The notes beneath the pieces are model-generated. The model was not told where the DNA came from. It was given only the letters and a program-made list of their open reading frames with translations, and did no database searches. Position numbers and translations under genes: made by a program. This document shows positions 16,448-54,179 of a DNA stretch of 64,000 nt, piece by piece (position 1 is the stretch's first letter; every line of letters starts with the position of its first letter). The stretch is from NCBI RefSeq assembly GCF_000384295.1, contig NZ_KB913037.1, forward strand, positions 1,094,762-1,158,761, written 5' to 3'. Origin of the DNA: Amycolatopsis balhimycina FH 1894 (GTDB lineage Bacteria; Actinomycetota; Actinomycetes; Mycobacteriales; Pseudonocardiaceae).

Positions 16448-16625
16448 CTGCACGCTGGCTCCTCTCCTCCTCAATACCTGGCACGCAGTGTATTCGATTG
16501 AACACAACACCGTGTCGGATTTCATCCTCCGGATGTATGGAATCCGGTACCACACGACTCCTACCTGCTGAAACTCATACGTCGACGTCGTTTGCGGCCG
16601 CAACGTTCCGCTGCACGCTCAACCC

Positions 16626-16904
16626 ATGCAAGCGACAGCGGTAGCACACGGTGACAACAAGATCCCCCGCGACTCAGGTGCCTCGACCGAAGTTCAGGTT
16701 GCCTCCTCGGGTCCGGTTTCGTTGGCCGTGACTCCCCAGCCGAAAGGGGCTGTCCTCTTGGAGGCCGCGTTCCGGCAGCTCAGGCGACCGCGCGAACACG
16801 GTGAGCAGCTGACCGAGATGGATCATCAAGCGGCGACGCTGGTACTCGACACCTTCTGGCCGAAGTTCGGTACTCCGCGACCACTGCCGGAGCGCTGGCG
16901 ATAA
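16626..16904 (+). CDS. Small hypothetical protein
   Basis: A 92-residue frame with ATG, no membrane segment and no domain I recognise; the C-terminal half (LEAAFRQLRRPREHGEQLTE) is helical and charged, and the end PKFGTPRPLPERWR is Pro-rich. It lies between a regulator and the DUF5753 gene and reads in the same direction as the latter. Real gene status is moderate. Confidence 0.4.
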   Translation: MQATAVAHGDNKIPRDSGASTEVQVASSGPVSLAVTPQPKGAVLLEAAFRQLRRPREHGEQLTEMDHQAATLVLDTFWPKFGTPRPLPERWR

Positions 16905-16920
16905 CAAGCCACGGTTCTTC

Positions 16921-16935
16921 GTTTGTATCCCAAAC
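16921..16935. promoter_or_regulatory. Inverted repeat upstream of the DUF5753 regulator
   Basis: GTTTG-TATCC-CAAAC is a perfect 5-base inverted repeat ending 28 bases before the ATG at 16964. It is a plausible operator for the helix-turn-helix protein it precedes. Inference only. Confidence 0.35.
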
Positions 16936-16963
16936 AACACGACAATCTGCAGAGAGATCGACC

Positions 16964-17791
16964 ATGTCATTGCCAACCATCCGCCGCCCTGCCGCATTGA
17001 TCGTCAGCGCCAGCCTCCGCGAGGCACGCGAACGGCGAAAGATCGGGCTGCGCCGACTCGCTGACAAGCTCGGCGTGTCACCGGCGCGCCTGTCCGGCTG
17101 GGAGCTGGGAACCCACATCCCGCATCCTCCCAATGTCGCCCACATTCTCGGCTTCCTCGGGATCAGTGGCGCCGAGTACCAGAGGTTCATGGAGCTGGCG
17201 AAGCACCTCCATGACGACAACCTCATCACAGGCGAGGACGCGCAGGCCTTCAGTCTGATGTGGACGTACGAGCAGCTGGCGGAGCGGGTCGTGGAGTGGG
17301 CTCCTTTCTGTCTTCCCGATCTCCTTCGGACTCCACAACACTTCGATCGCGACCCCGGCGCGGACGAGAGCCCGTCTTGTCGCGAACTGGAATCACTTGA
17401 ACGAACCGTTCGCCAGCAAGCGATGCTGAACGGTCCTCGCCGCTACCTCTTCCTCATCAGCGAGGAGGCAGTACGTGCGGCAAGCAACGAAGCTGACGCT
17501 GAGGAACAGATCCAGCGCCTTCGAAGCGCGGCGAGCCTGCTCCACGTCACTGTCAGGATCGTGCCGACAACCGCGAACGAACTGAGCCCGCCTCACGCTT
17601 TCACCCTCTTCGAGAACCGACGCACATCGATTGCCGTAGCGTTCAAAAACGTTCATTGCACCGCGTACCTCACAGAGAAGGTACTGCTCGACAAGTATTC
17701 GGACACCGTAGGAGCCCTTCAGCGCCAAGCCTCGACGGAGGCGGCTGAAGCCGACACGCTGGACGGCTTCACGTGGGGCCGAGCGTCATGA
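16964..17791 (+). CDS. XRE helix-turn-helix protein with DUF5753 (Scr1-type) domain
   Basis: A 275-residue regulator: helix-turn-helix at about 15-65 (GLRRLADKLGVSPARLSGWELGTH), then the DUF5753 domain with its WAPFCLPDLLRT, ERTVRQQAML and VRIVP signatures. Actinobacterial proteins of this kind are paired with small partners in Scr1-type toxin-antitoxin-like or developmental modules. The last codon overlaps the ATG of the small gene 17788 (ATGA). It probably controls the radical SAM operon behind it. Confidence 0.82.
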   Translation: MSLPTIRRPAALIVSASLREARERRKIGLRRLADKLGVSPARLSGWELGTHIPHPPNVAHILGFLGISGAEYQRFMELAKHLHDDNLITGEDAQAFSLMWTYEQLAERVVEWAPFCLPDLLRTPQHFDRDPGADESPSCRELESLERTVRQQAMLNGPRRYLFLISEEAVRAASNEADAEEQIQRLRSAASLLHVTVRIVPTTANELSPPHAFTLFENRRTSIAVAFKNVHCTAYLTEKVLLDKYSDTVGALQRQASTEAAEADTLDGFTWGRAS

Positions 17792-18048
17792 CGGCCGCGG
17801 TGATCTACATCGATCCCCTCATGATCCACCCGGTGATGGACGGCGTGTGGCACCACGCACGCCTTGCAGGCATCCCCGACCCGGGCGAGGCGATCACCAT
17901 GCTCTGCGGCGTCACGGGCGTCGCAGCATTCCTGCCGCTGAGCCAACGGCGGCACAGCACGATACCCCGTCAGTGCGAACGATGCGACGCGATAGTCCGG
18001 CAACAGCGAGGCATCCCACTGCGGCAGAACCGAACCGGAAGAAACTGA
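17788..18048 (+). CDS. Small partner protein of the DUF5753 regulator
   Basis: An 86-residue protein of unknown family. It begins with a short hydrophobic stretch, has a central AITMLCGVTGVAAF segment and ends in a basic region with a CERC pair (one CxxC only, so not a complete zinc finger). ATG overlaps the regulator stop by four bases, and the radical SAM gene starts 47 bases later. The position matches that of the small partner in Scr1-type modules. Confidence 0.55.
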   Translation: MTAAVIYIDPLMIHPVMDGVWHHARLAGIPDPGEAITMLCGVTGVAAFLPLSQRRHSTIPRQCERCDAIVRQQRGIPLRQNRTGRN

Positions 18049-18095
18049 ACCTGCCCTAGCCACAGCCATTCGCATCGTCCTCAAGGGAGTAAACG

Positions 18096-19202
18096 ATGAC
18101 CGTCCGTCCGATCGCCGTCGACGAGCAGGCGTCGAGCTGCTACTTCCGCACCACCGTCGACACCCCATACCGCAAGGCTCTGGTGCAGATCACCGAGCGG
18201 TGCAACCTGCGCTGCGCGCACTGCTTCGTCTCCGCCACCAAACGCGGCAAGGACATGCCGCTGACCGAGGTCGTCAAGAAAGTCGTCCCTCGGCTGGCCG
18301 ACGCCCGAGTTCGGCGCGTGACGCTGACCGGCGGCGAGCCGACCGTTCACCCGGACTTCCTCGGCATCGTGCACGCCTTCCGCAACGCCGGAATCGACGT
18401 CGGCATCTGCACGAACGCCACCGAGCTCGACGACAAGCTCATCCAGCAGCTGACCACGGCCGGAGTCCACGTCAACGTCTCGCTCGACGGGTTCGCCGCC
18501 GACTCCCACGGCCTGTTCCGCGGCGACCGCGCCTCGTTCGACGTGACCGTGGCCAACGTCCGCAAGCTCGCCGCGGCTGGGCTGCTGCAGGGCCTGCTGT
18601 GCACGCCGAACTCTTTGGCCGCCAACGAGGAGTACGTCCGGCTGTGCGCCTTCGCCCGCGAGAACGGCGCCCGCTACGTCCTGCTCAACCCGCTGGGCAG
18701 CATGGGCCGCGGCGTGAAGTCCCAGCGAAAGCTCGCCAAGACGACCATGCACATGCAGGAGATCTTCGAGCTGACCGCCCCGTTCGACGGCCCCGACTTC
18801 GACATCGCCCACATCCGCTTCCCCAACACCGACCGCAAGCCCCTCGCCGGCTGCGAGGCCGGAACGATCATCTACGTCTTCACTCCGGGTGAGGTCACCG
18901 TCTGCCCTTACCTCGTCTTCGCCGCCCGCACCCCGATCTCGCGGCACCCCGACACCGACTTCATCGTCGGCAACATCTTCACCGATCGCGACCTCGCCGC
19001 CCGCCTCGACAACTACCGCTTCCACGAGCGGTTCCAGGTCGACGCGAACCCGACCTGTACGTCCTGCAGCCTCGAACCCCGATGCGGCAAAGGCTGCCCC
19101 GCCGCGGTCGTCGCCGCGGGCGGACGCATCGGCGACGTCGACGCCGAGCAGTGCCCCGTCACCGCCGAAGAACACCGGCTGCTGCCCCTGGACGTCGCAT
19201 GA
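18096..19202 (+). CDS. Radical SAM enzyme with SPASM-like C-terminus
   Basis: A 368-residue radical SAM protein. The [4Fe-4S]-binding motif CNLRCAHC is at residues 36-43, followed by LTGGEPTVHPDF (SAM-binding GGE motif) and VSLDGFAAD. The last 70 residues hold a Cys cluster, CTSC-x5-C-x3-C with an EQC further on, plus an earlier CEAG and CPY, which is the pattern of SPASM/twitch auxiliary cluster domains found in peptide and carbohydrate modifying enzymes. It is translationally coupled (ATGA) to a thymidylate-kinase-like gene, which suggests a nucleotide-linked substrate; the SPASM tail would otherwise suggest a peptide. No precursor peptide gene is obvious nearby. Confidence 0.85.
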   Translation: MTVRPIAVDEQASSCYFRTTVDTPYRKALVQITERCNLRCAHCFVSATKRGKDMPLTEVVKKVVPRLADARVRRVTLTGGEPTVHPDFLGIVHAFRNAGIDVGICTNATELDDKLIQQLTTAGVHVNVSLDGFAADSHGLFRGDRASFDVTVANVRKLAAAGLLQGLLCTPNSLAANEEYVRLCAFARENGARYVLLNPLGSMGRGVKSQRKLAKTTMHMQEIFELTAPFDGPDFDIAHIRFPNTDRKPLAGCEAGTIIYVFTPGEVTVCPYLVFAARTPISRHPDTDFIVGNIFTDRDLAARLDNYRFHERFQVDANPTCTSCSLEPRCGKGCPAAVVAAGGRIGDVDAEQCPVTAEEHRLLPLDVA

Positions 19203-19831
19203 GCGCGCTGCGGCTGCCGGGCAAGCTGGTGGCATTCGAAGGCCCCGGCGGCGTCGGCAAGACGACGATCACTGCGCTGGTCGCCGAGCTCCTCGGAGCG
19301 GACGGCGTTCCCGTGCACGCCACCGTCCAGCCGTCGCGCTCCCCGCTGGGCGAACTGGCTCGGCACGGCACCGACACCTACCGCGACATGGCTCTGGCCT
19401 GCCTATGCGCGGCCGACCGTCACCACCAGCTGACCAGCGAGATCCTCCCGGCCCTGGCCGAGGGCAAGATCGTGCTCTGCGACCGGTACGCGGCATCGTC
19501 GCTGGTCCTCCAAGGGCTCGACGACATCCCGCTCGATGTCGTCTGGGCGCTCAACCACGATGTGTACCGCCCCGACCTCGTGTGCGCGCTCAACGCTCCA
19601 CCCGCGGACGTCGAACAGCGACTCCGCGCCCGCGGCGGACACAGCCGCTTCGAGCGCACCCCCGGAAGCAGCTTTCGCGAAACCCTCGGCTATCTGGCGG
19701 CCATGACTTTTCTGCGCGACCAGGGCTGGCCCGTCGAGATGATCGAGTGCGCCGACGATCCCCGCGCCACGGCTGGCACCATCGTCGACCTGATCCACCG
19801 CATCTTCACGGAGAGCCCGGCATGCCCCTGA
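19199..19831 (+). CDS. Thymidylate kinase-like P-loop kinase
   Basis: A 210-residue P-loop kinase. Walker A is GPGGVGKTT at about 15-23, the DRYAASSLVLQG segment is the DRY/H motif of thymidylate kinases, and a late RARGGHSRFE Arg-rich segment stands where the LID lies. dTMP kinases phosphorylate dTMP to dTDP; this copy is shorter than housekeeping Tmk and belongs to an operon, so a dedicated (deoxy)nucleotide role is likely. ATG overlaps the radical SAM stop by four bases and its own end overlaps the next gene by ten. Confidence 0.82.
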   Translation: MSALRLPGKLVAFEGPGGVGKTTITALVAELLGADGVPVHATVQPSRSPLGELARHGTDTYRDMALACLCAADRHHQLTSEILPALAEGKIVLCDRYAASSLVLQGLDDIPLDVVWALNHDVYRPDLVCALNAPPADVEQRLRARGGHSRFERTPGSSFRETLGYLAAMTFLRDQGWPVEMIECADDPRATAGTIVDLIHRIFTESPACP

Positions 19832-20637
19832 CCGTCCTCACCCTCAACGTCGGCAACCCCGCCCTCGAACGAGGCCGCCGCCAGCGCGACTGGCTCGCCC
19901 GCCGCCACGAGGACGTCTTTGTGCTCACCGAGACCGGCTCCGGGCCCGGCACCCAGCTGATCGCCGAGTCCTACCGCGACGCCGGCTGGTCAGTCACCTA
20001 CCCCGAGCACCCCGACAAGGAACGCGGCGTCATGCTGCTGTCCCGGTTCGAGTGCACGGTGGACCCCATCGGCGCTGCGATGTCCTACCTGCCCGCCCGG
20101 CTGGCCGGCATCGTGCTGGACACCGACGGCGGTCCGCTGCGCGTCCTCGGCGCCTACGTCCCCTCCCGCGACGCCACCGAAGCTAAGACCACCCGCAAGC
20201 GCGCGTGGATCGACGCCTTCCACCAGGCCTACGAAGCCACCGGGGACGACGCCGCCGTTCTCCTGCTGGGTGATCTCAACGTCCTGGAACCCGGTCACGT
20301 ACCGCCGCACCCAGGGCAGTTCGCGCCGTTCGAGACCACCTTCTACACCGCGCTCACCCAACGGCACGGCCTCACCGACCTTTTCCGCGCGCTGCACCCG
20401 ACCGCCGTCGAGCACAGCTGGGCCCGCCGCGCGGAACTCGGCTACCGCTACGACCACGCCCACGCCTCCACCCCGCTCCTCGCCCACCTCACCAGCTGCA
20501 CGTACGTCCACGACACCCGTTCGGGGAACCCCGCCCTCACGGACCATTCAGGACTCGCCGTCCAGCTGACGCTCACCGCGACCGCGCCGCTGATAACCTC
20601 CGACCCGGCCGCGGACCGCGAGGCAACGCTGTTCTAG
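19822..20637 (+). CDS. Endonuclease/exonuclease/phosphatase (EEP) family protein
   Basis: A 271-residue metal-dependent phosphodiesterase. Motifs in order: LTLNVGN at the start, VLTETG (metal-binding Glu), GVMLLSRF, VLGAYVPSRD, LLLGDLNVLEPGH (catalytic DxN), YRYDHAHAS, and the terminal LTDHSGLAVQL (SDH-type His). All catalytic positions are present. Family members cleave DNA, RNA 2'-phosphodiesters or lipid/nucleotide phosphates. Overlaps the kinase gene by ten bases, so it is part of the same operon. Substrate unknown, probably nucleotide derived. Confidence 0.82.
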   Translation: MPLTVLTLNVGNPALERGRRQRDWLARRHEDVFVLTETGSGPGTQLIAESYRDAGWSVTYPEHPDKERGVMLLSRFECTVDPIGAAMSYLPARLAGIVLDTDGGPLRVLGAYVPSRDATEAKTTRKRAWIDAFHQAYEATGDDAAVLLLGDLNVLEPGHVPPHPGQFAPFETTFYTALTQRHGLTDLFRALHPTAVEHSWARRAELGYRYDHAHASTPLLAHLTSCTYVHDTRSGNPALTDHSGLAVQLTLTATAPLITSDPAADREATLF

Positions 20638-20694
20638 CCAGAGGGCTCGTGCCCGGCCGCCACACCAGCCGCCGAGCACAAGGGGCCTCACCGG

Positions 20695-21189
20695 ATGACC
20701 GTCGCCAGCGACCCGACGTTGCGGGTCGGCGCCCGCGTCCTGCTCCTCAACCCCGCCGACGAAGTCCTGCTCATCCACGCCCGCGATCCCGACAACCCCG
20801 ACCATCACTGGTGGGAACTCCCCGGCGGCGGCCAGGACCCGGGCGAGAAGCTCGAGGACACCGCCCGCCGCGAGATCGCCGAGGAAACCGGGCTGGTTCT
20901 GGACGAGATCGGCCGCAAGCTCTGGACCCGCGAGAGCCGCTTCACCTACCGCGGTCAAGAGCACCACCGCCTCGACCACGTCTACCTCGCCCGCACCGAC
21001 CACGACGCCCCGCAGGTCGCCCTCCGACACACCGCCAACGAGCGCGCCGGCCTGATTGAGCGGCGCTGGTGGTCAGCTGCCGCGGTCTCGACCTGCCGTG
21101 ACAAGCTCTTGCCCGCCGAGCTGCCCGACCTCCTGCAGGCACTCTTCGACGACCGCTTCCCAATCACTCCCCTGACACTCACTGCCTGA
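20695..21189 (+). CDS. NUDIX hydrolase
   Basis: A 164-residue NUDIX protein with a complete box, GGGQDPGEK then REIAEETGL (about 42-64). It begins 57 bases after the EEP gene and closes the operon. NUDIX enzymes hydrolyse nucleoside diphosphate derivatives; together with the kinase and EEP protein it gives the operon three nucleotide-handling enzymes around one radical SAM enzyme. Confidence 0.82.
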   Translation: MTVASDPTLRVGARVLLLNPADEVLLIHARDPDNPDHHWWELPGGGQDPGEKLEDTARREIAEETGLVLDEIGRKLWTRESRFTYRGQEHHRLDHVYLARTDHDAPQVALRHTANERAGLIERRWWSAAAVSTCRDKLLPAELPDLLQALFDDRFPITPLTLTA

Positions 21190-21204
21190 GACCAGCCTTC
21201 CCGC

Positions 21205-21540
21205 GTGGGCGCATCGCTGACCAGGTCGGCATCGCGATCGGACACAGACCGACTGCGCCACCGGACCGTCTAGCAGCGGAGCCGTCCAATGACACGACGA
21301 GGGCCGAGCCATCGCGGCTGCGCAAACGTCCGGCCGAAGCCGAGGAACTGATACTCAGCGGTGATGTGAGAATCACCGAGAGTATCCATCCGGCGGCTCA
21401 CGCACAGGCCCAGCGGTCACCGCACCGACCTCTGTGCTGTCGATATCGAGTTCGACCGACCGCTCGGCCAGCGTGCCTGCGGCCGACGGATGGGCGACTG
21501 AGACGAGGCCGACGCCCGGGCTTCCCCGCAGCCGATCGCG
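21205..21540 (-). pseudogene. Degenerate GNAT acetyltransferase fragment, copy of the gene at 38286
   Basis: On the minus strand pieces in different frames read VGLVSVAHPSAAGTLAE, EVGAVTAGP and FLGFGRTF, each matching the intact GNAT gene at 38286-38906 (VLVAHPPAAGTLAG, LVGAVTAS, RLGFGRTL). Nucleotide similarity to 38317-38640 is visible along most of the stretch. Stops and frameshifts make it non-functional. It fills the 500-base gap between the NUDIX and Mrr genes. Confidence 0.75.
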
Positions 21541-21703
21541 ACAGCGATTCACACGACCACGCAGGCTCTGCGCGGATATTATCAAACGGTTTCAGTCCGC
21601 ACGGTCGACGTAAAGCAGCGGTATCCCCTACGAAAATCGACCGCACCACACGGTGTAGCGTGTCGGAAAGCTATCTGCTTGCGGCGCGGAACAATGGTCG
21701 CTG

Positions 21704-22303
21704 ATGCCGATGTCCGCAACGGAAGGTGGGGCGCTCGTGGTAGAGGATGGGTTCGATCGGTGGCCGACGTTCGCTCTGAGCCCAGCTGAGTACGAGCGCG
21801 CCGTCGTCGACATTGTCACGACGACGGGCCACGAGATTACCGACTGGCGAGTAGAGCACCTGGACCCGGTCGAGGGCATGGACGGCACATACATTATCGA
21901 TGTGACCGCCCGGTTCAGGGTTATGGGCGCCGATTTCGTGATCCTCTTCGAATGCAAAAGACACTCTCGCCCGGTCGAACGCGAGGACGTCCAGGTCCTC
22001 CAGGACAAGCTGCGTTCGACGGGAGCACACAAGGGTGTTGTCGTCGCTGCAAGCGGGTTCCAGCGTGGCGCGTTGCAGTACGCGCAGAAACACGGAATCG
22101 CGTGCGTGAGGCTGGTCGACGGAGCCTGGACATACGAGACACGTGACCACAACGCACCGGCCGTCCCGCAACCCACAGGCAACTTTCTCGCGTACGCCCG
22201 CAGTCTCGGCGACCGGGGATTCCGCAATGTGCTGCTGAGCGACCAGCAATCGTCGGTACGCGACCTGCTGTTCACTACCTCCGGCGAGATGCCGACGGTA
22301 TAG
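21704..22303 (+). CDS. Mrr-like PD-(D/E)XK restriction endonuclease
   Basis: A 199-residue nuclease of the Mrr_cat type. The catalytic core is IIDVTARF (Asp66), then DFVILFECKRHSRPV with ECK at 83-85, then QVLQDKL and GVVVAASGFQRGALQYA, the standard Mrr order. Mrr enzymes cut modified or otherwise recognised foreign DNA. There is no N-terminal winged helix, so target choice may come from a partner. The ATG of the caspase-helicase gene lies 21 bases after its stop, so the two form an operon. GTG codons near 21735 are alternative starts. Confidence 0.82.
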   Translation: MPMSATEGGALVVEDGFDRWPTFALSPAEYERAVVDIVTTTGHEITDWRVEHLDPVEGMDGTYIIDVTARFRVMGADFVILFECKRHSRPVEREDVQVLQDKLRSTGAHKGVVVAASGFQRGALQYAQKHGIACVRLVDGAWTYETRDHNAPAVPQPTGNFLAYARSLGDRGFRNVLLSDQQSSVRDLLFTTSGEMPTV

Positions 22304-22324
22304 ACCCCGGAGAACGAGTTGACC

Positions 22325-25300
22325 ATGCGGTTCCACGGCACGTTTATCGGGATCGACCGCTACCAGGCTGCCGACATCGGCTTCCTCACCTCTGCGGTAC
22401 GCGACGCGACCGCACTGCACGCGCTGTTCACCGATGGCTTCGACGGCGAACCTGCTCTGCTGACCGACGCGGATGCGACCCGAGCCAAGATCGTCGAGGA
22501 GCTACGGCGGCTGGCGGCGTCCAGCAGCGACGACGATCTGGTCGTCGTCAGCTTCTCGGGTCACGGCAGCACCACACACGAACTGGTCCCGTATGATGCG
22601 GATCGCGCCAGGCTCGAGGAAACCGGGCTACCGCTGGAAGACCTCGCCGAACTTCTGAACCAGATCCCGGCGGCGACGCTGATCTGCGTGCTCGACTGCT
22701 GCTTCTCCGGCGGATTCGGCGCCAAGGCCCTGACAGCTCCGTTACACGCTCGCGGTCTTGAATCGGAGCTCGACCTATTGGAGCACATCGCCGGCCACGG
22801 CCGGATCGTTCTCGCTGCGTCCGCGCCGAATGAGCGGGCATACGAGGACCCCGGGCTTGGTCACGGCCTGCTGACCTACGAGCTGCTGACAGCGCTGCAG
22901 GGAGCGCCGGAGGTCGTCAGCGGTGGCAAGATCGACGTGTACAAACTCCTTGAACACGTCACCCGCAGGGTAGTCGACGCGTCCTCGGCAGTCCGCAAGG
23001 AACAGCATCCATGCTTTCGAGGCAGCCTCGCCGGCACGCCGACGTGGCCGATCCTCACGCCGGGCGCCCGATATGCGGCAGCCTTTCCCGAGTTCGTTCG
23101 CCAGCCCGCGACAGCGGACCTGGACAGTCTGGCATCCTTTGGCATCCCTCAGGTAGTCCTGGACACCTGGGGGCGGTCGATAGCCGAGCTCAATGCGCTA
23201 CAACTGGCCGCGATCAACGACTTCGGCGTCCTTGACGGCAAGAACCTGCTCGTCACCGCTCCGACCTCGTCGGGCAAGACCATGGTCGGCGAACTGGCCG
23301 CGCTCCGTGGCGCGGTGGACCACCAGCGCGCATTGTTTCTGCTCCCCATGCGCGCGCTGGTCGATGACAAGTACGCGGAATTCACGCGCAAGTACGCCGA
23401 TCTCGGTGTCGTGACCATTAGGTCGACCGGGGAAATCAGCGACGACAACGCGGCGCTGATGAGCGGCCGCTACGACATCTGCCTGATGACCTACGAGAAG
23501 TTCGGCTCGATGATCCTCGCCAACCCGTACTTGCTGCGCCAAGTCGGCACGATTGTCGTGGACGAGGTGCAGATGCTGGTCGACCCGGGCCGCGGAGCAG
23601 ACCTCGAGTTCGTCTTGACCCTGGTCAAGAGCCGCCGGGCCGCCGGAATCAATCCGCAGATCATCTGCCTGTCTGCCGTCATCGGCGACACCGGCGGTCT
23701 GGAGCGCTGGCTCGACGGACGGCAGCTCCGGCGGGAAGAACGCCCTGTGCCCTTGGTCGAAGGCGTCGTCGACGGGACCGGCCAGTACCGGTACCTGGAC
23801 GAGGAGGGACAGCCGAAGGCCGAGAAGGCGATCACGCCGTTGTGGAGTGGCAAGAACAGCAGCCAGGATGTGGTCATCCCGTTGGTCGCCAAGCTTGTCA
23901 GCGAAGGCAAGCAAGTCATCGTCTTCCGGGAAACCAAGGGCGAAACGCTCGGTTGTGCAGGTTACCTGTCCGCACAGCTCGGTCTCCCACCGGCCCAAGC
24001 CGCGCTCGACGCCTTGCCGACGGGCGATCTCTCGACATCCTCCGAACGGTTGCACAAGACGCTTGCCGGAGGGGTCGGCTTTCACAACGCCGACCTCACC
24101 CGCGAGGAAAGGCTGGTCCTCGAGGAGGAGTTCCGTCGTCGCGACACCGAGCTTCGTGTTCTCGTAGCCACCACCACGCTCGCCATGGGCGTGAACACTC
24201 CCGCATCCGCGGTAGTGATCGTCGGGCTCAATCATTTCAGCGGTCCGTACACTGTCGCCGAGTACAAGAACATGGTCGGCCGGGCCGGCCGGCTGGGGTA
24301 TGCTGAACACGGTGAGTCCTACATCGTCGGAACCCGAGGTCTCGACGTTCAACGGATCTGGTCTCGTTACGTCACTGGCAGGCCCGAGGACGTGAAATCG
24401 GTTTTCCTCAAAGACGTCACCGACCACCGGACGCAGGTGCTTCGCACACTCGCAGCGCTGCAGCCCGGCCCGGACGGCAGCGTCGAGTCCGACGTGCTGA
24501 TCTCCTTCCTGGAAAGCACCTTCGCCGCATTTCAGCAGCGTCAGGCCAACCCCGGATGGAGCTGGGGAAAAGGCCGCATTCTCGGCATCCTGAGCGAGCT
24601 TCAACAGCACCAGCTGATCGAGATCGTCGACGGTGGTCGGTACCGGCCAACCGACCTCGGGCGGTTCGCAGGCGAAGGTGGAGTATTTGTCGACTCGATC
24701 ATCCGGCTGGTCGAAGTGCTGCGCCACGTGACTGCACAACCGAACTCGACGACGTTGATCACCGCCGCCCAAGTGACGAAGGAACTCGACGATGTCCACT
24801 TCCCGTTCCATCGGAAAGCCAGGAATACCGAACACCGACGATGGCCGCAGGAGCTGATGAACCAGCAGGTCGAGCCGCGCGTGCAGAACATGCTGCGCAT
24901 TGGCGGCACCGACCAGCTCGCCAGCGCGGTCAGGGCGAAGAAGGCCATGGCCTGTCTGCTGTACGCGAGCAGCACACCACTCGGCGTTGTGGAACAACAC
25001 CTCATGCAGCACAACCTTGGCAACGAGGCCGCGGGCGCGATACGTAGCGTCGCCGGTCGCACGCGCGACTTGGTACCGGCCGTCATGCGAGTGTTCACGT
25101 TCCTGCACCCCGATGTCGCGACGAGCTCCCTGGCCGAGCGCACGATGGTACGTCTCGAACTCGGCATCCCAGCCGAGCTTGTCGACCTTGGAATGGTGCT
25201 CGGCGCCGAACTCACCCGGGCGCAGTACCTCGCACTTCTCGGCCACGGCATCACGACCCCTGATGAGGTCGAAGCCAGCGACGTCGAGAGCCTGGCCGAT

Positions 25301-25411
25301 CACCTCAACGTCTCTACGGCCAGGGCCGCTGAGCTCCAGGCCTTCCTGCACAACCGTGAGCGGCAGAGCGAGGAGTCGTTCGTCCCTTTGCTCCCGCCGC
25401 CCACTGAGTAG
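22325..25411 (+). CDS. Caspase-like protease fused to a Ski2-type DExH helicase
   Basis: A 1028-residue two-part protein. Residues 1-240 are a peptidase C14 (caspase/metacaspase) domain: FIGIDRYQ start, catalytic His in VSFSGHGS (His80) and catalytic Cys in VLDCCFSGGF (Cys126, second of the pair). Residues 270-800 are a superfamily 2 helicase: Walker A APTSSGKT at 312-319, VVDEVQML box II at about 411, ATTTLAMGVNTP box V and NMVGRAGRLG box VI near 650. A helical tail of about 200 residues ends in a helix-hairpin-helix-like region (LLGHGITTPDEVEASDVESLADHL). ATG at 22325 is preferred to the TTG at 22319 because GGAGAA is well placed. Coupled with the Mrr nuclease, it looks like a defence system in which nucleic acid sensing by the helicase triggers proteolysis. 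Confidence 0.88.
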   Translation: MRFHGTFIGIDRYQAADIGFLTSAVRDATALHALFTDGFDGEPALLTDADATRAKIVEELRRLAASSSDDDLVVVSFSGHGSTTHELVPYDADRARLEETGLPLEDLAELLNQIPAATLICVLDCCFSGGFGAKALTAPLHARGLESELDLLEHIAGHGRIVLAASAPNERAYEDPGLGHGLLTYELLTALQGAPEVVSGGKIDVYKLLEHVTRRVVDASSAVRKEQHPCFRGSLAGTPTWPILTPGARYAAAFPEFVRQPATADLDSLASFGIPQVVLDTWGRSIAELNALQLAAINDFGVLDGKNLLVTAPTSSGKTMVGELAALRGAVDHQRALFLLPMRALVDDKYAEFTRKYADLGVVTIRSTGEISDDNAALMSGRYDICLMTYEKFGSMILANPYLLRQVGTIVVDEVQMLVDPGRGADLEFVLTLVKSRRAAGINPQIICLSAVIGDTGGLERWLDGRQLRREERPVPLVEGVVDGTGQYRYLDEEGQPKAEKAITPLWSGKNSSQDVVIPLVAKLVSEGKQVIVFRETKGETLGCAGYLSAQLGLPPAQAALDALPTGDLSTSSERLHKTLAGGVGFHNADLTREERLVLEEEFRRRDTELRVLVATTTLAMGVNTPASAVVIVGLNHFSGPYTVAEYKNMVGRAGRLGYAEHGESYIVGTRGLDVQRIWSRYVTGRPEDVKSVFLKDVTDHRTQVLRTLAALQPGPDGSVESDVLISFLESTFAAFQQRQANPGWSWGKGRILGILSELQQHQLIEIVDGGRYRPTDLGRFAGEGGVFVDSIIRLVEVLRHVTAQPNSTTLITAAQVTKELDDVHFPFHRKARNTEHRRWPQELMNQQVEPRVQNMLRIGGTDQLASAVRAKKAMACLLYASSTPLGVVEQHLMQHNLGNEAAGAIRSVAGRTRDLVPAVMRVFTFLHPDVATSSLAERTMVRLELGIPAELVDLGMVLGAELTRAQYLALLGHGITTPDEVEASDVESLADHLNVSTARAAELQAFLHNRERQSEESFVPLLPPPTE

Positions 25412-25564
25412 CACCGTCGTGGACACCCGCGGCCGCAGAAAGCTAGGTGTACTGCTCGGGGAGGTCGCGATCGTGGTCACACATGGTCGGATGACCTTGG
25501 TGTGACGGAAGGCCTCCGGTTCGGTGTGGATTGCGACGTCGACACCAGCCCAACGGAGGTCCCC

Positions 25565-25833
25565 GTGACCCACGCCAACGCACCCTGACCCCGACCGGCA
25601 GAGACTCCACCTGGCCCGATGCGTCGTTGAGCACGGCTGACCGCTACGACTACGACGGGCGGCGGAACGGGCTCCAGGTGCGGTTCTCGACCACCGTCTG
25701 CAGGGCCGGCCGCTACCGCGACCTCGGCAAAGCCGGCATGGCCGACCAGCCCAGCCGCCCGCGCACCAGTCCAGCCCAGACACCGACGCGGACCGAACGA
25801 CGAATCGTCAAGGGCGGGGTACTGCGGCGCTGA
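25565..25833 (+). pseudogene. IS481-type transposase N-terminal remnant
   Basis: Starting with GTG the frame reads VTHANAP, the usual start of IS481 transposases, then shifts into LTPTGR and continues in fragments to YRDLGKAGMADQPSRP and PTRTERRIVK, the helix-turn-helix region. Frame breaks and a missing DDE domain make it dead. The rest of 25412-25916 holds nothing else I can support. Confidence 0.65.
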
Positions 25834-25916
25834 GATGCGAGTATCTGCCCGCGTCGCTTGTGCGATGACACTGACAAGTGTGTAACAAGACCGCCGAAAC
25901 AATCGACTCTGGGGCT

Positions 25917-26507
25917 ATGAGTCCTGCGGCCCGCACTACAGCGATCGTCATCGTCGCCGCCGTTCTAGTATTACTCGCGATCCTCATGCGACGACTGTCG
26001 AATCACCCAGACCGATGGACGATCACCAGCGGTGTAATTGGTTTGATCGGAATGATCGCCGCCATCGTCAGCGCGACAAACGATTGGAACTCGTCACCAT
26101 CGGCAGCGCCAACGGTATCACCTACCGCCTCAAGCCCCACCGCGTCTTCACAGCAAACTCCGACGACGCAGCCTCGAGTCGAGCCGAGCATGCAGTACCC
26201 CGGTCAGACTTCCCTGCCGCCAGATTCACCGCTTCGGGAAACTGGACTGCCACACATGGAGGACGCCTGCGAAAGGGCCGGATATCCGGCTGACGCATGG
26301 ATTCCGGGTCAGACCAAACCGCACAGCTTCGCAGGTCGTGTTCTTCACGCCACTGACCAGGCCTACAAATGGACTTGCGGGTCGAACAAAGGACCACAAT
26401 TGACACGGGAAGAGATCACCGTTGCATGTCAGGTCTGGGCACCCGACACTCAAGCCTACTCATGGGACCGGATTTCGCGTACTCCTGGACGTGCATTTAG
26501 GACGTGA
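25917..26507 (+). CDS. Two-TM membrane protein of unknown function
   Basis: A 196-residue protein with two hydrophobic helices at about 8-25 and 37-53, then a Ser/Thr/Pro-rich linker (60-105) and an extracytoplasmic globular region of about 90 residues containing four Cys (EDACERAGYP, WTCGSN, VACQVW). ATG at 25917 gives a clean start; a GTG at 25878 is also in frame. It stands alone between the caspase-helicase and the broken nuclease gene. Confidence 0.6.
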   Translation: MSPAARTTAIVIVAAVLVLLAILMRRLSNHPDRWTITSGVIGLIGMIAAIVSATNDWNSSPSAAPTVSPTASSPTASSQQTPTTQPRVEPSMQYPGQTSLPPDSPLRETGLPHMEDACERAGYPADAWIPGQTKPHSFAGRVLHATDQAYKWTCGSNKGPQLTREEITVACQVWAPDTQAYSWDRISRTPGRAFRT

Positions 26508-26747
26508 CCTGCACTGCCTGCCGGGCACAGAATCTCATTGAGCCAATGCTAACGCCCGGTGGATGAATGACGCAGGATTATTGCAATTCCGCCGGCCCTG
26601 GCTCCACTCTGCCGCCCGCGTCGGCTTTTACAGCCGTTGTCACTGCGCTAGAATCGGCTCGGTGTAAATATCGGGCGCGTAGCTCTTCGCCTTCCGCACG
26701 AAGAACGCGCAGCGAGTACCGAAAACCACATCCAACCGGGGCATCAG
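26508..26747. other. Intergenic, no supported gene
   Basis: Nothing coding is recognisable; base composition is somewhat lower in GC than the surroundings. Confidence 0.4.
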
Positions 26748-27436
26748 TCATATGCCGCTTTCATCGACGACATCGGCATGATTCCGCCCGAGACCCGAGA
26801 TAAACCTGACTTCTGGTGAACCCGACGTACCCCAACCACTGAAGTCGCGCACGATGTCGCTGACCGAGCCGATAGTAGCCGGCGTCCATGCCTCGGCGCT
26901 GGTTGCGAACAGTAGCCGGTCGGCGCGCAGCCACGCCGCCACACGACACTTTTTCTCCACCTCCAATCTGGCCTTTCGGCCGGTCAGGTCGCTACCGCTC
27001 TTGCACTCGGCCACGGTAAGGACATCGTCGGCATACGCCACCAGATCCACTTCGACCTGTGGTTTGCCTCCGTCGAGAAACGTGACCTCCTCGACGTCGC
27101 CGAACGACGAGCGCCGGTCCTTCCGCGTCGCCCGCAGGTATGCCGACAGCAGGGCAGACACTTCACCGTGCTCGGCCAGAACATGCCGGCCCACCGGATG
27201 CAGGTCGTAGAACCACGTCGGCTCGTTCACGGGGAGCTTCCACGCGGACCGGTCAAGGTCGTTCAACGCGTCACAGCGGGCGCACCGCCAGCGCTGGCCG
27301 AGCCGATCGATAGTCTGAAACTGCTTCTGCTGGCACGTCGAGCACAGAAGCACCATCCCGCGGCGCAGCATCCCGGAACTTAGAGCGGCATCCACCCGGT
27401 CACGCACGTCGGCCTCTGTCAACGCCTCGGGAACTT
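26748..27436 (-). pseudogene. C-terminal part of a zinc-ribbon / PD-(D/E)XK nuclease gene split by IS21
   Basis: About 225 residues, open from the IS21 edge to 26748. Residues 27-50 form a zinc ribbon (CSTC-x16-CARC); further on a PD-(D/E)XK core is evident: EVDLVAYADDVLTVAECKSG with Asp126 and E-C-K at 139-141. The sequence has no own ribosome site and begins at the element boundary, so this is the 3' end of the gene whose 5' part lies at 29603-31460. A TTG or ATG inside could still give an independent nuclease domain. Confidence 0.7.
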
Positions 27437-27484
27437 TGACCCCCGGTGGTCTCCGGAAAATTGACCCCTCCGCGGTGTTGCTGT

Positions 27485-28294
27485 CTAGTTCCGGTCGGGG
27501 TTCTGCTGCTGGTCGCGTAGCAGGTTGCGGCGCTGGCGGGTCCGGTAGGAGTCGCCGGTCAGGGTGAGAACTTCGGCGTGATGGACCAGGCGGTCGATCA
27601 TGGCCGCGGCGACGACGTCGTCGGAGAAGGTCTCACCCCAACGCCCGAACGGCAGGTTCGACGTCACCATCACCGAGCCCTGCTCGTAGCGGGAAGCGAT
27701 GAGCTGGAAGAACAGGTTCGCCGCGTCCTGATCGAACGGGATGTAGCCGACCTCATCGATGATAATCAGTTTGTAGCGGCGGATCTTCTTGAGTTCGTCC
27801 TCGAGCCGGTTGCCGTGGTGGGCGGCGGTGAGCCGGGCGATCCAATTGCTCGCGGTGTCGAACAGCACCGAGTAGCCGGCCTGGGTGGCTTTGACGCCGA
27901 GCCCGATCGCGAGGTGGGTTTTGCCGATGCCGGGCGGGCCGAGCAGGATCACGTTCTCGGCCTTCGCGAGGAACGTGCCGGTCGACAGATGCGCCAAGAT
28001 GTCGCGGCGCAGCGAAGGCAGGTGATCGAGGTTGAAGTCCTCCAAGGTTTTGACCGCCGGAAAGTGGGCGGTGCGGATCCGCATCACGGTGCCTTTGGAT
28101 TCGCGGTCGGCGACCTGGCGGGCCAGCAGCGCAGCGAGGTATTCCTCGTGTGACCAGTTCTCGTCCCGGGCCTGACCGGCCAGCTGCTCCCAGAACATCC
28201 CGATCGTCGGGGTCTTGAGCGCCCGGGTGAGATAGGCGATCTGGGACGGCAGCCCATCTTTCGGCGCCGCGGAGGTGGACTCGGTTGTGCTCAC
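27485..28294 (-). CDS. istB: IS21 helper ATPase IstB
   Basis: A 269-residue AAA+ ATPase of the DnaA/DnaC-like clade. Walker A is GPPGIGKTH at about 118-126, Walker B is KLIIIDEVG near 180, and the sensor TSNLPFGRWGE follows. IstB assembles on DNA and stimulates the IstA transposase and target choice. Its ATG overlaps the istA stop by four bases. Length is normal, so the element may be active. Confidence 0.92.
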   Translation of the reverse strand: MSTTESTSAAPKDGLPSQIAYLTRALKTPTIGMFWEQLAGQARDENWSHEEYLAALLARQVADRESKGTVMRIRTAHFPAVKTLEDFNLDHLPSLRRDILAHLSTGTFLAKAENVILLGPPGIGKTHLAIGLGVKATQAGYSVLFDTASNWIARLTAAHHGNRLEDELKKIRRYKLIIIDEVGYIPFDQDAANLFFQLIASRYEQGSVMVTSNLPFGRWGETFSDDVVAAAMIDRLVHHAEVLTLTGDSYRTRQRRNLLRDQQQNPDRN

Positions 28295-29556
28295 GTGTTG
28301 CTCGCTTTCGTTGGTGGTGCAGTGAAATCGACGCCGAAGAGCGCGTCGTAGTCCGGCAGGGCCCGCATCGCGACGACGTGTCCGTCGGCGTGACGACGGG
28401 TCTCGCCGGAGGCCTCGCGGCGCGCGCGTTCGGCCGCGAAGTTCTTCCGCAGCAAGGCCGCGGCCTGCTGGTGGGCCGGATCAGTGATCACGACCTGCTT
28501 GGCCCAGCAACGGTCGTGCCGGGCGACGACCTGCCCGTCGCAGGACACCTTCACCTGCTCCGGGGATGCCGCGATGTCGACGAACCGGCCGATCATCCGC
28601 GGGTCGACGGAGTAGTCGACGGTGTCGACCCGCACGTAGTAGTCGCGGCCGAGCCGGACCCGCTGGTTCAGCCCGATCGGCGGGGCGACCGGCGGCAGCG
28701 GCAGCATCGCCTGGTAGTCGGTCTCCAGCAGCTCCACCGGGCGACCCTGGATCGACCGGACGGTCCGGTTGTTCGCCTGGGCCAGCCACGCATCCAGCTG
28801 GATGTTGAAGTCCGCGGGTGAGGTGAAAACGCGGCCAGGCAGGAACGAGGTCTCCAGGAATTGGTTGTTCCGCTCGACTATGCCCTTGAACTCCGGGTCC
28901 CGCGGTGGCGCGAGCACGATCTTCGTGGCCAAGGTGCCGGCGAACGCCGCGGCCGGGACGCTGACCCGCCCGGTCCCGCCGATCGCGGACTCCCGGTCCC
29001 AGACCAGTTGCTTGGTGACCCGGCCGATCCCGTTGATCAGCTGCCACATGCCCGACAGGATGTCCCCGGCCTGCCGCGACGGGATCATCGTCGCGGTAAG
29101 GAACCGTGAGAAGCACAACGTCATCACCAGCACCGGCAGCATCCTTTCCTGACCCGCGGCGACCGGGATCCGTGGCTCGGGGAACCACAAGTCACACTGG
29201 GTGACCTGCCCGGGCTCATACGCCACCCGGTCGACCGGGTCGATCCCGGCATATTCCGGCCGCAACGCGGCCAGCTTCTTCTTCAACGGCGACATAGAAT
29301 GCGGCCAGCCGATCTTCTGCGCGATCACCGGTCCCGGCAACCGCGGCCATTCGGCCAGCAACGCCCGGATCTGCGGCTCGAACGCATCCGCCGCCGACCC
29401 TCGCGCCGCCCGCTCATACTTCGGCGGCCCGTCCGATCTCAACGCCGCCCGGACCGTGTTCCGTGCGATACCCAGCCGCCGGGCGATCTCCTTGATCGGC
29501 ACGCCCTCGGCCCGATGCAACCGGCGGATCTCCGCCCAGTCCTCCACGTTCAGCAC
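28291..29556 (-). CDS. istA: IS21 transposase IstA
   Basis: A 421-residue DDE transposase. It has an N-terminal helix-turn-helix (KEIARRLGIARNTVRAAL), then the catalytic core with QCDLWFPEP (first Asp), VWDRESA (second Asp) and KGIVERNNQFLE (Glu), followed by a C-terminal beta-barrel region. Starts 46 bases inside the right end of the element. All three catalytic residues are present, so it is probably functional. Confidence 0.92.
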   Translation of the reverse strand: MLNVEDWAEIRRLHRAEGVPIKEIARRLGIARNTVRAALRSDGPPKYERAARGSAADAFEPQIRALLAEWPRLPGPVIAQKIGWPHSMSPLKKKLAALRPEYAGIDPVDRVAYEPGQVTQCDLWFPEPRIPVAAGQERMLPVLVMTLCFSRFLTATMIPSRQAGDILSGMWQLINGIGRVTKQLVWDRESAIGGTGRVSVPAAAFAGTLATKIVLAPPRDPEFKGIVERNNQFLETSFLPGRVFTSPADFNIQLDAWLAQANNRTVRSIQGRPVELLETDYQAMLPLPPVAPPIGLNQRVRLGRDYYVRVDTVDYSVDPRMIGRFVDIAASPEQVKVSCDGQVVARHDRCWAKQVVITDPAHQQAAALLRKNFAAERARREASGETRRHADGHVVAMRALPDYDALFGVDFTAPPTKASNT

Positions 29557-29602
29557 CCTCCTACCTCAGAGGGGTCAACTTTCGGAGGGCGCCTGGGGGT
29601 CA

Positions 29603-31460
29603 GTTTTCACGAAGCGACGACAGCCTCATCGAGGCCGGCGACGCGCGTGCACATTCCGGCGAAGGTCAACACACCCTCCGTTGACGACAGTGACACGCCG
29701 TCCCCGTCCGGGTACGCCACCTTGCTTGTCGAACTGGTCACCAACATGCCGCGGAGCGCCGACAACAGAACTCCACCGAACACATCGACGTACTGCTCGC
29801 GCCCTCCGAGCATGCCCACTAGCAGTCCCGTGCGCAGACCAGCTTCACTCGGCCTCGCTACAAGATCGCGTTCCGCCGCCTTGGCTCTGATCCATGCGAC
29901 GAGGCTCAACTCGCGGAGTGCGACTCGGGCAAGGGTGTTTTCCGGCCTGGTCCCGCGCGTGACGAAGTCATTCCGCCGTGACTGGTAGGTCATGCCGTGG
30001 CGGCTGCTTCTTGCCCATGTGGACATAAAAGCCGGGCGGCTACCGAACAGCTCGATGCTGTCCAAACCACGTCGACGCACAGCACGGCTGTCCTCCCAGT
30101 GCACGTCGACGTGCCACTGAAGATCCTCCTGAGCCACCAAATCGGCACTCACGAGCACCGGAGCAGGAAGCGGTGCAGCCATTCGACGAGTACCGTCCTC
30201 CGCGACGGATATCGGCACGGTCACCTGGCTGTCCCACTGGTCTTCCACGGCCAGACTCACGGTCGGCTGCTGTCGCCACGGCAACTTTGGACTGAAGATC
30301 ACATCGAGCTTCGGATCCTGCTGCCCAGGGATCTTGATCTGATTCGCCGCAACGACACGGTCGCGCGTGACCTCGAGTTCCTTTTCCGATCGCGAGATCG
30401 ACGTGATCGCCAGGCGGTTGGAGTTTCGAGCGAGATCACGTGCGATCCGTGCAATACGGTGTCCGAGACGCCACCGTACAGTGCCCTCACCATCAAGCAA
30501 CGACGACGGCAGCCAGAATCCGGTGCCGAAGGTCAGCTGCCAGAGGCGGGCCAGCGCAAAGTCCTCGGCGCTGTCGCCGACGACCAAGAGTCCGGTGCGG
30601 TGGATGTCAAAGCCGGTATGAACGTCGACGAGATGCGTCTTGGATCGGGCGTGGGCCGTCGGCGTCATCTTGGTGTCCATGCCAACTGCTACACCGGGAT
30701 GCCACATCAACTCGTCGGGCGCTGAGCAACTCGGGTCGTCGAGCAGCCAACCGGCCAGCTGCTCCCGAAGGTCATCGTCGAGCACAGGTTCTTTAGCATT
30801 GTGCTCTGGTGGTGCGGCGACACCAGCGTGATTTGCTACGGCAGCACCGAGCACACCTCCCCAATGCGCGGGACAGGCAAGGACGGATGCATGCCATGTC
30901 TCCGACATATCCACGACGTTCGGGAAATGGCCGGTCGGCTCGTCGCCCAGGTACTCGATGCTCTCGTGCCAGGCACCTCCACGGCGAGAGGCGTAGGGAG
31001 AGCACACGGCAGCGATCTGTTCCCGTGCGGCGTGGTCGGCGGCACTCGGCACAGCCTCGTCCACCACCATGCTGAGCATCCGCTCTCGCTCGTCTCCTGA
31101 GAGAGGTTCGCCGTCATCTCCGGCGATCGTGAACCAGCCCGGACGGAGATTTTCCAAGTCGTCCACAGTTGGGCTGTAAGTCACGACAAAATCTGGGTCA
31201 TATGCCTCGCATGCGCGCAGCAGTACGGGGTCGACCTGACCACCACGGTGCGGTACGACTGCGAAGCCAGCACCGCCCCAGGCCCGGTCCGCGCGATACA
31301 GAGCGCGACGCACCCAGTAGCTCCAATGCTGGCCGCCGTCGACGATGATAACGACTCGCGGAGGGCGCAGGGTCGTACTTACCGAGGTGTACGACAAGAT
31401 TTCGGTCGATGCCACTGGCCGATTGAACCATGCGATACGTGGTTCGAGCCGCTGCCCCAT
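29603..31460 (-). pseudogene. N-terminal part of the large gene split by IS21, possible defence nuclease component
   Basis: About 617 residues open from ATG at 31460 to a TGA created at the IS21 junction (last residues GLDEAVVAS). The N-terminus after a short leader reads RVVIIVDGGQHWSYWVRRAL, a Rossmann-like strand-loop with Asp and His, and later FVVTYSPTVDDLENLRPG. The rest resembles no family I know. Joined with 26748-27436 it would make a product of about 840 residues ending in a zinc ribbon and PD-(D/E)XK nuclease. Gene direction, lack of a proper C-terminus here and lack of a start in the other part support one ancestral gene. Confidence 0.65.
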
Positions 31461-54170: not shown

Positions 54171-54179
54171 GCCTGCGGC

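What the first reader, a model, noticed from the sequence alone, without database searches (positions are those of the whole stretch)
21704..25411. Mrr-like nuclease plus a single-chain caspase-Ski2 helicase: candidate undescribed defence system
The sequence shows a two-gene operon: a PD-(D/E)XK nuclease (Asp66, ECK 83-85) and, 21 bases later, a 1028-residue protein with a caspase His-Cys dyad (GHG, DCC) fused to a complete SF2 DExH helicase (APTSSGKT, DEVQ, GRAGRLG). Known families: Mrr cleaves foreign DNA; Ski2-like helicases are nucleic-acid motors used in defence systems such as Hachiman (HamB); caspases execute abortive infection. A helicase sensor wired in cis to a protease, with a nuclease in trans, would be a new combination as far as I know. 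It lies in a region full of defence-type genes and ISs.
Basis: partly seen in the sequence, partly recalled or inferred. Interest (0 to 1): 0.92.

Follow-up and report, generated by a model that had tools for sequence, protein, structure and literature searches.

The report
Caspase-helicase fusion with nuclease partner
A mobile two-gene cassette encodes a DNA-cutting enzyme next to a single protein that joins a caspase-type protease to a DNA helicase; it probably senses invading DNA and triggers self-destruction of the cell, although this has not been tested.

Summary
Window 21704-25411 holds an Mrr_cat-type PD-(D/E)XK nuclease gene and, 15-21 bp on, one protein joining a C14 caspase to a Hel308/Ski2-type helicase. 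The fusion is no oddity: all 216 full-length relatives among the 232 listed rows examined carry the caspase, with both active sites conserved (His 215/216, Cys 216/216, Walker Lys 216/216). It is sporadic (22/390 family genomes, own included), sits on 12 plasmid records and lies among defence genes (QatABC, pPIWI-RE, PD-T4-7). The nuclease pairing is real but belongs to some branches: 4 of 82 loci. Window, Lentzea and Nocardia DNA match over the pair and not beyond it; the tree needs at least two changes of Mrr pairing, one locus having reversed gene order. Elsewhere partners differ or are missing. Best reading: a Hel308-like DNA sensor switches on a cis-fused Arg/Lys-specific caspase, which activates a companion nuclease, paralleling HamMAB and Canu (2025) with different parts. 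The mechanism is by analogy: no structure of the fusion could be computed and there are no phage data.

The parts
21651..25415 (+). two-gene cassette: the stretch of nucleotide homology shared with Lentzea californiensis (L001, 82.5%, from 21655 to 25414) and Nocardia takedensis (L002, 80.2%, from 21651 to 25415), with unrelated flanks
   Evidence: blastn of window 15001-32000 against the loci; tblastx check of the flanks
21704..22303 (+). Mrr_cat-type PD-(D/E)XK nuclease, 199-aa ORF; probable start at 21737 (188 aa). D55, E72-C-K74 (188-aa numbering) invariant in 120 homologues; C-terminal extension after residue ~136; no N-terminal Mrr domain match
22319..25411 (+). caspase-helicase fusion protein (1030 aa from TTG 22319; 1028 aa from ATG 22325)
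22343..23026 (+). C14 caspase domain, residues 9-236; catalytic His82 and Cys128; acidic residues D29 and D126 predicted to form the S1 pocket; basic residue R145 in the loop after the catalytic Cys, a predicted self-processing site
   Evidence: PMC6426788 section 17 for the acidic pocket
23138..25327 (+). Hel308/Ski2-type SF2 helicase, residues 274-1003, including DEAD (294-455, nt 23198-23683) and Helicase_C (585-660, nt 24071-24298) and the C-terminal helicase region

Best explanation
A mobile anti-phage (or anti-invader) cassette. The constant part is a single-chain sensor-protease: a Hel308-type DNA helicase that loads on abnormal DNA such as single-stranded or forked replication intermediates, with a caspase fused to its N-terminus. 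Engagement of DNA (ATP-driven movement, or clustering of several copies on DNA) switches on the caspase, possibly by self-cleavage after the basic residue R145. The caspase then cuts after Arg/Lys and activates a companion effector. In this genome and its relatives the effector is the small PD-(D/E)XK nuclease encoded immediately upstream, which destroys DNA and stops the infected cell. Shown here: the two-gene unit, its mobility, intact and conserved catalytic residues in all three enzymes, purifying selection, defence-gene company, recurrent pairing with the nuclease. Inferred: the DNA trigger (from Hel308 and Hachiman HamB), basic P1 specificity (from the acidic pocket), nuclease activation by cleavage (from HamMAB and Canu), and cell arrest.
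For: Caspase and helicase travel together: 216 of 216 listed homologues of 950 aa or more have both, with both active sites kept. Cassette borders at 21651/21655 and 25414/25415 against Lentzea and Nocardia; outside them only scattered tblastx scraps of at most 41 codons in these two. Mrr and fusion co-occur: of 390 family genomes (own included) 22 have the fusion and 6 the Mrr; 4 have both, adjacent in all 4, where independence would give about 0.3. 16 of 35 listed fusion proteins at >=62% identity share the exact length of their longest contig with a listed Mrr hit, against 0 of 85 below 62%. Distances of the two proteins correlate (Mantel r=0.73, p=1e-4, 16 pairs). The tree needs at least two changes of the Mrr label (two gains, or a gain and a loss); Mrr is upstream in the window branch and downstream in L092. 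Another partner, PDC-S54, shows the same pattern. Acids: D29 in 215 of 215 ungapped rows and D126 in 216/216; R145 is Arg/Lys in 216/216 (178 of 179 in the wider set) inside an otherwise variable loop. Precedent for a protease-activated nuclease under a sensor helicase: HamMAB; for a caspase-activated nuclease: Canu (PMC12799240).
Against: Mrr relatives exist without the fusion (L113, L114 in 10 kb; L115, L116 only in about 3 kb). The best candidate cleavage site in the nuclease, Arg136 (R 116, K 2 of 118 ungapped rows), is also Arg in three of those four (Asn in L113), so it is weak evidence. No blocking insertion comparable to HamM or CanC was demonstrated. Self-cleavage at R145 is uncertain: PMC5756287 (passage) says type I metacaspases do not self-process between p20 and p10, while caspases and type II metacaspases do. 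The fusion could not be modelled. No phage, biochemical or expression data.
Confidence: 0.5

Rival explanations
1. Hachiman-like complex: the nuclease is bound and restrained by the helicase and released without proteolysis when the helicase meets damaged or replicating DNA; the caspase is a second, parallel executioner that cuts cell proteins.
For: HamAB works this way without a protease (PMC12278908, abstract in listing and passages); PADLOC HamB profiles hit the helicase core at 105.7 bits; the nuclease lacks an N-terminal Mrr domain match and would need another protein to aim it.
Against: The best HamB match covers residues 305-658 only; the nuclease is Mrr_cat, not HamA; the caspase dyad is as strictly conserved as the helicase motifs, also in distant loci without the Mrr.
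Confidence: 0.2
2. The caspase-helicase is a complete stand-alone abortive-infection protein; the nuclease is an optional add-on that widens or strengthens it.
For: Partners vary (Mrr, PDC-S54, AbiJ_NTD4, DEDDh exonuclease, TIR) and 19 of 52 loci show no same-strand neighbour of 150 aa or more; the fusion itself is constant.
Against: Recurrent pairing with the same Mrr family and the same PDC-S54 family, in both gene orders, and cassette borders around the pair argue for a working link where the partner is present.
Confidence: 0.2
3. A DNA-repair or stress device: a Hel308-like repair helicase whose caspase processes repair proteins; not immunity.
For: Hel308/HELQ are repair helicases (PMC12278908, passages); the best curated profile is Hel308-type.
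Against: Present in 2 of 396 phylum-sample and 22 of 390 family genomes, own included, on plasmids, as a mobile cassette, beside known defence systems: not the pattern of a housekeeping gene.
Confidence: 0.06
4. A member of the EACC1-caspase conflict system of multicellular bacteria, with the helicase as its variable C-terminal domain.
For: The only curated caspase profile among the 25 shown is 'caspase, EACC1-associated type' (97.5 bits); that system pairs a caspase with many C-terminal domains (PMC7159879, passages).
Against: 97.5 bits is below the curated cut-off of 140; the upstream gene is an Mrr_cat nuclease, not EACC1.
Confidence: 0.03

Closest known systems
HamMAB, nuclease-protease Hachiman (PMC12799240)
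   Same: Upstream separate nuclease gene, a protease wired to an SF2 Ski2-like sensor helicase, defence role
   Different: There: MBL-fold nuclease, trypsin-like protease fused to a dead HamA, separate HamB helicase (3 genes). Here: PD-(D/E)XK nuclease, caspase fused directly to a Hel308-like helicase (2 genes), no HamA
Canu caspase-nuclease system (PMC12799240)
   Same: Caspase-family protease next to a nuclease
   Different: Canu has an MBL-fold nuclease with gating loops, a MALT1-like caspase with Ig-like fold and a third gene in its prototype; no helicase in the caspase chain is described in the sections I read
Hachiman HamAB (PMC12278908) and AbpAB
   Same: Nuclease + Ski2-like helicase; helicase as genome-integrity sensor, described as functionally close to Hel308
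   Different: No protease; HamA differs from Mrr_cat; the best HamB match here covers the helicase core only
EACC1-associated caspases (PMC7159879; NF047832)
   Same: Closest curated caspase profile shown
   Different: Below cut-off; EACC1 partner gene absent
Hel308 / HELQ helicases
   Same: Helicase part aligns over nearly the whole of a Hel308-type profile (residues 274-1003; PDB 2zj2 E 3.8e-52)
   Different: Far below the equivalog cut-offs (263.8 vs 887 bits); fused to a caspase; PMC12278908 (passage) calls Hel308 absent in bacteria
Mrr type IV restriction enzyme
   Same: Mrr_cat catalytic domain
   Different: No N-terminal Mrr domain match; extra C-terminal segment; paired with a caspase-helicase
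Helicase-linked bacterial metacaspases counted in PMC3501461 (12 of 671 sequences)
   Same: May include this fusion class
   Different: Only counted by domain function; the passages found name no helicase type, no nuclease partner of these and no mechanism

Membership tests
Hachiman (HamAB/HamMAB) | HamA (DUF1837) component | tested here: not met
   The neighbouring nuclease matches Mrr_cat (and, below cut-off, NA-iREase1) in Pfam and no HamA model among its 5 PADLOC matches
Hachiman (HamAB/HamMAB) | HamB helicase over its length | tested here: not met
   The best HamB profile matches residues 305-658 only, 105.7 bits, profile 316-694 of 1163
Canu | MBL-fold pro-nuclease (CanC) | tested here: not met
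   Nuclease is PD-(D/E)XK Mrr_cat; no Lactamase_B match at E<=1
Canu | Ig-like domain after the caspase | tested here: not met
   Caspase is followed by the helicase; no Ig match at E<=1 in Pfam
EACC1-caspase system | caspase of NF047832 above cut-off | tested here: not met
   97.5 bits, cut-off 140
EACC1-caspase system | EACC1 gene upstream | tested here: not met
   Upstream gene is the Mrr_cat nuclease
Caspase/metacaspase clan (C14) | His-Cys dyad in a C14 domain | tested here: met
   Pfam 61.1 bits, cut-off 21.4; His 215/216, Cys 216/216
Metacaspase/orthocaspase type specificity | two Asp in the S1 pocket | tested here: inconclusive
   By sequence position only: D29 in 215 of 215 ungapped rows, D126 216/216; pocket residues of TbMC2 as cited in PMC6426788; equating D29 with Asp95 and D126 with Asp211 is my inference, no TbMC2 alignment was made
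Caspase/metacaspase clan (C14) | active-site superposition | not testable with these tools
Hel308 helicase | equivalog score | tested here: not met
   263.8 bits against cut-off 887; 215.1 against 1200
Hel308/Ski2-like SF2 group | SF2 motifs and Hel308-like C-terminal extent | tested here: met
   Profile 6-698 of 739 aligned to residues 274-1003; motif residues kept in 215-216 of 216 rows
Mrr type IV restriction enzyme | Mrr_cat catalytic domain with D...ExK | tested here: met
   53.7 bits, cut-off 21; D55, E72, K74 in 120/120
Mrr type IV restriction enzyme | N-terminal Mrr domain (recalled as a winged-helix DNA-binding domain) | tested here: not met
   No match at E<=1; in the model the first helix starts at residue 16 of 188
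Anti-phage defence system | phage protection dependent on catalytic residues | not testable with these tools
   needs plaque assays

The most novel reading that the evidence does not exclude
A widespread undescribed immune sensor family: a DNA-activated initiator caspase, in which a Hel308-type helicase and a caspase form one molecule (sensor and protease in cis), coupled to interchangeable effector genes (Mrr-type nuclease, PDC-S54, exonuclease and others) that it switches on by cutting them.
Probability: 0.35. Interest if true: 0.9.

Novelty: new variant of a known kind. Interest (0 to 1): 0.74.

Why it matters
Proteolytic activation of nucleases by caspases is familiar from animal cell death and has only recently been shown in bacteria (PMC12799240). 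Here sensor and caspase appear to be one molecule, found from Actinobacteria to candidate phyla, Bacteroidota, Proteobacteria, Acidobacteriota and Cyanobacteria, so a single protein could show how nucleic-acid sensing is converted into caspase activity. It also gives a compact, directly testable two-gene cassette and a fusion family for which my ten literature searches found no functional description.

Tried and rejected
Viral contigs: no relative of either protein by a scan that reaches close relatives only; phage records: none at tblastn E<=1e-40. Arg136 of the nuclease as caspase site: kept only as a weak lead, because three of four partnerless Mrr relatives share it. KAP/QatA, AbiE-like and pPIWI-RE neighbours as dedicated partners: rejected; they look like whole defence systems of their own beside the fusion, and the AbiE match is weak (AbiEii E 0.0092; AbiEi_2 E 0.0067). 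HEPN-type neighbours of L003 and L009 are below the Pfam cut-offs (15.9 vs 28.4 and 25.7 vs 26.8 bits). EACC1 membership: rejected on two points. GC3 as a sign of foreign origin: weak, since a neighbouring NB-ARC gene is lower still (0.73); the 'helicase part' line was out of frame and is not used. Literature: searches listed no paper on a caspase fused to a Hel308/Ski2-type helicase; PMC3501461 counts helicase-bearing metacaspases. The library lacks most subscription papers, and supplements were not read.

Other near copies (such as L026, L044, L088) were kept, and loci cut by contig ends were kept. One search used 80 of these 82 (proteins over 700 aa), the window and 14 of 120 P rows; six of its Mrr labels rest on the contig-length proxy, 61 rows bear no label and are not counted, and support is SH-aLRT from a short search with long branches flagged. 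One search dropped 16 of 232 rows under 950 aa (4 of these 16 show no caspase; all 16 look like fragments). One search used 50 sequences, one search used 34 of 120. Searches compare only listed rows (120 of 1189; 118 of the 120 listed out of 174; 104 of 112 new rows of the 120 listed out of 922). Only listed rows of the 1189 were checked for a caspase, so some of the rest may be plain helicases. L002 holds under 2 kb beyond the pair on one side. L115 and L116 are only about 3 kb long. Rows taken from loci can run to the upstream stop, so they carry N-terminal overhang.
Full report
What is there. Window 21704-25411 (+) carries two ORFs: 199 aa and, 15 bp later, 1030 aa from a TTG (21 bp to the ATG, 1028 aa). 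The first matches Mrr_cat (2.6e-14), the second Peptidase_C14 (1.7e-16), DEAD (1.8e-24) and Helicase_C (8.1e-11). Among curated families the helicase is nearest to Hel308-type ATP-dependent DNA helicases (3.2e-78, residues 274-1003, below the equivalog cut-off) and the caspase to the EACC1-associated type (97.5 bits, cut-off 140). Solved relatives by sequence are led by Hel308-type structures (2zj2, 3.8e-52; HamB 8vx9 at 1.7e-20). The caspase part alone finds the uncharacterised protein GSU0716 (3bij, 0.0026) and, not significantly, metacaspase-4 (0.2); the nuclease finds no solved chain at E<=1. The nuclease was modelled at mean pLDDT 79.7; the core (about residues 16-133 of 188) is followed by a variable linker and a small extra segment.

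The fusion is constant and widespread. A search of 5.8 billion proteins gave 1189 relatives at E<=1e-10, 120 of them listed; a second search from a distant member gave 922 at E<=1e-200. Of the 232 listed relatives of both searches, 216 are 950 aa or longer, and all 216 have the caspase domain. His82 is kept in 215, Cys128 in 216, Walker Lys320 in 216, Asp415 in 215, Glu416 in 216. In the wider set with distant loci, His is 178 of 178 and Cys 178 of 179 ungapped rows. A scan of genome contigs gave 52 loci from Actinobacteria, Bacteroidota, Proteobacteria, Acidobacteriota, Cyanobacteria, Armatimonadetes, Verrucomicrobia, candidate phyla and others. It is rare within groups: 2 of 396 genomes of the phylum sample and 22 of 390 of the family at E<=1e-80, the own genome included in both. 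It is on 12 plasmid records, 5 of them typed conjugative. It was not found in 50,697 phage records at E<=1e-40 nor in viral contigs by a scan for close relatives.

The nuclease is a true partner in this branch. Against Lentzea californiensis (L001) nucleotide homology runs from window 21655 to 25414 (82.5%) and against Nocardia takedensis (L002) from 21651 to 25415 (80.2%); blastn finds nothing else of the 17 kb compared, and an uncapped tblastx finds only scattered scraps outside the pair, at most 41 codons long in these two loci. L002 holds under 2 kb on one side of the pair. The pair therefore moves as a unit of about 3.76 kb. Its GC3 (0.76 and 0.80) is lower than that of the neighbouring radical-SAM and NUDIX genes (0.93, 0.89), but an NB-ARC gene nearby is lower still (0.73). 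dN/dS is 0.07-0.18 for every part of both genes. In 390 family genomes the nuclease (E<=1e-20) occurs in 6, the fusion (E<=1e-80) in 22, both in 4, adjacent in all four; one of these is cut by a contig end, and in one (G667 = L092) the nuclease lies downstream. Distances of the two proteins correlate over those 16 pairs (Mantel r 0.73, p 1e-4) and over 18 pairs with two from the second branch (r 0.90, p 1e-4). On a quick tree of 95 fusion proteins the Mrr label needs at least two changes under starred branches: two gains, or a gain and a loss. The reversed gene order in L092 favours two gains.

Elsewhere partners change. Seed searches in 82 loci found Mrr in 4; a PDC-S54-type gene in 4 (upstream in L015, L080 and L081, downstream in L018; again at least two changes on the tree); an AbiJ_NTD4 gene in 4; a DEDDh exonuclease in 2; and single TIR and other genes. 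HEPN matches beside L003 and L009 are below the Pfam cut-offs. L089 has a PD-T4-7 homologue upstream (135.2 bits). Seven loci have a QatA-type gene downstream (in L021: QatA 1067, QatB 488, QatC 703 bits); 11 loci of an actinobacterial branch have a pPIWI-RE-type gene upstream on the other strand (clustered by BLAST; domain-checked in L040 and L101). These last are separate defence systems and speak for defence islands, not for dedicated partners. 19 of 52 loci have no same-strand neighbour ORF of 150 aa or more within the limits used, 4 of them near a contig end. ORFs were called mechanically, and there was no matched control for island enrichment.

How it probably works. Two acidic residues, D29 and D126, are conserved in every one of the 216 rows that has a letter there; they sit where metacaspases and orthocaspases have the S1 Asp pair that accepts basic residues (PMC6426788, section 17 read; the equation of positions is mine). 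So the caspase should cut after Arg or Lys. In the loop between the catalytic Cys and the next predicted strand, an otherwise variable stretch, position 145 is Arg in 211 and Lys in 5 of 216 rows, and basic in 178 of 179 rows of the wider set, with one Asp: a possible self-processing site. Against this, PMC5756287 (passage) says that type I metacaspases do not self-process between p20 and p10, while caspases and type II metacaspases do. Hel308 is a DNA helicase tied to replication forks and repair, and HamB of Hachiman is a genome-integrity sensor described as functionally close to Hel308 (PMC12278908, passages and cited titles). HamMAB and Canu show that a protease, trypsin-like or caspase, can switch on a separate nuclease (PMC12799240: Results and Discussion read). 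The simplest reading is that DNA engagement by the helicase activates the caspase, which activates the neighbouring nuclease. The nuclease has no N-terminal Mrr domain match, consistent with being governed by a partner. Arg136 of the nuclease, between core and tail, is basic in 118 of 118 ungapped rows, but is also Arg in 3 of 4 relatives without a fusion gene in the stretch held, so it does not prove cleavage there.

Novelty. Searches of open-access papers listed no description of this fusion's function. A 2012 survey counted helicase activity on 12 of 671 putative bacterial metacaspases (PMC3501461, passages). Among the 25 of 48 PADLOC (2023) families shown for the fusion, none matches the whole chain; the best are HamB and PDC-M23B on the helicase, with a general caspase profile on the N-terminus. 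Because nuclease-protease-helicase defence is now a known kind, I file this as a new variant: caspase in cis with a Hel308-type helicase, with a PD-(D/E)XK nuclease in trans.

Limits. 

Noticed in passing
window 43571-44608 (-): A second, shorter C14 caspase protein (345 aa, Pfam 32.2 bits) in the same window, in a run of overlapping minus-strand ORFs (42088-46246); the three neighbours checked have no Pfam match at E<=0.01.
   Followed up: partly
L047:11117-13738 (+): Next to the caspase-helicase of a Myxococcales MAG: one 873-aa protein with an N-terminal metallo-beta-lactamase domain and a C-terminal Peptidase_C25 (gingipain-type, recalled as caspase-like fold) domain, like a Canu nuclease and protease in one chain.
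   Followed up: no
L040, L097-L104, L107, L108: In 11 actinobacterial loci the caspase-helicase lies divergently beside a pPIWI-RE-type gene (in L040 also a PprPDDEXK gene, 289.5 bits); conserved adjacency of two defence modules.
   Followed up: partly
L014, L021, L030, L041, L043, L046, L050: Caspase-helicase upstream of a QatA-type gene (QatABC checked in L021), in several loci downstream of a 366/298-aa pair with weak AbiE similarity.
   Followed up: partly
L080 and L081 (alphaproteobacterial plasmids): Two TIR genes plus a further caspase-family gene lie near the fusion and its PDC-S54-type partner.
   Followed up: no
L083 (Agrobacterium pusense plasmid): Downstream of the fusion lie a UvrD-type helicase, a multiubiquitin-domain gene and a ThiF gene.
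   Followed up: no
window 31839-34544 (+) and 7190-9490 (-): Two NB-ARC/TPR proteins, STAND-type, in the window.
   Followed up: no
window 27485-29556 (-): Two adjacent genes that look like an IS21-type istB/istA pair, about 2 kb downstream of the cassette (read from the translations; not searched).
   Followed up: no
window 54070-57477 (+): A 1135-aa ORF with a DUF7779 domain and a below-cut-off AAA_16 match.
   Followed up: no
L113, L114: Mrr relatives (52% and 40% identity) in the same family of bacteria without a caspase-helicase within about 5 kb.
   Followed up: partly
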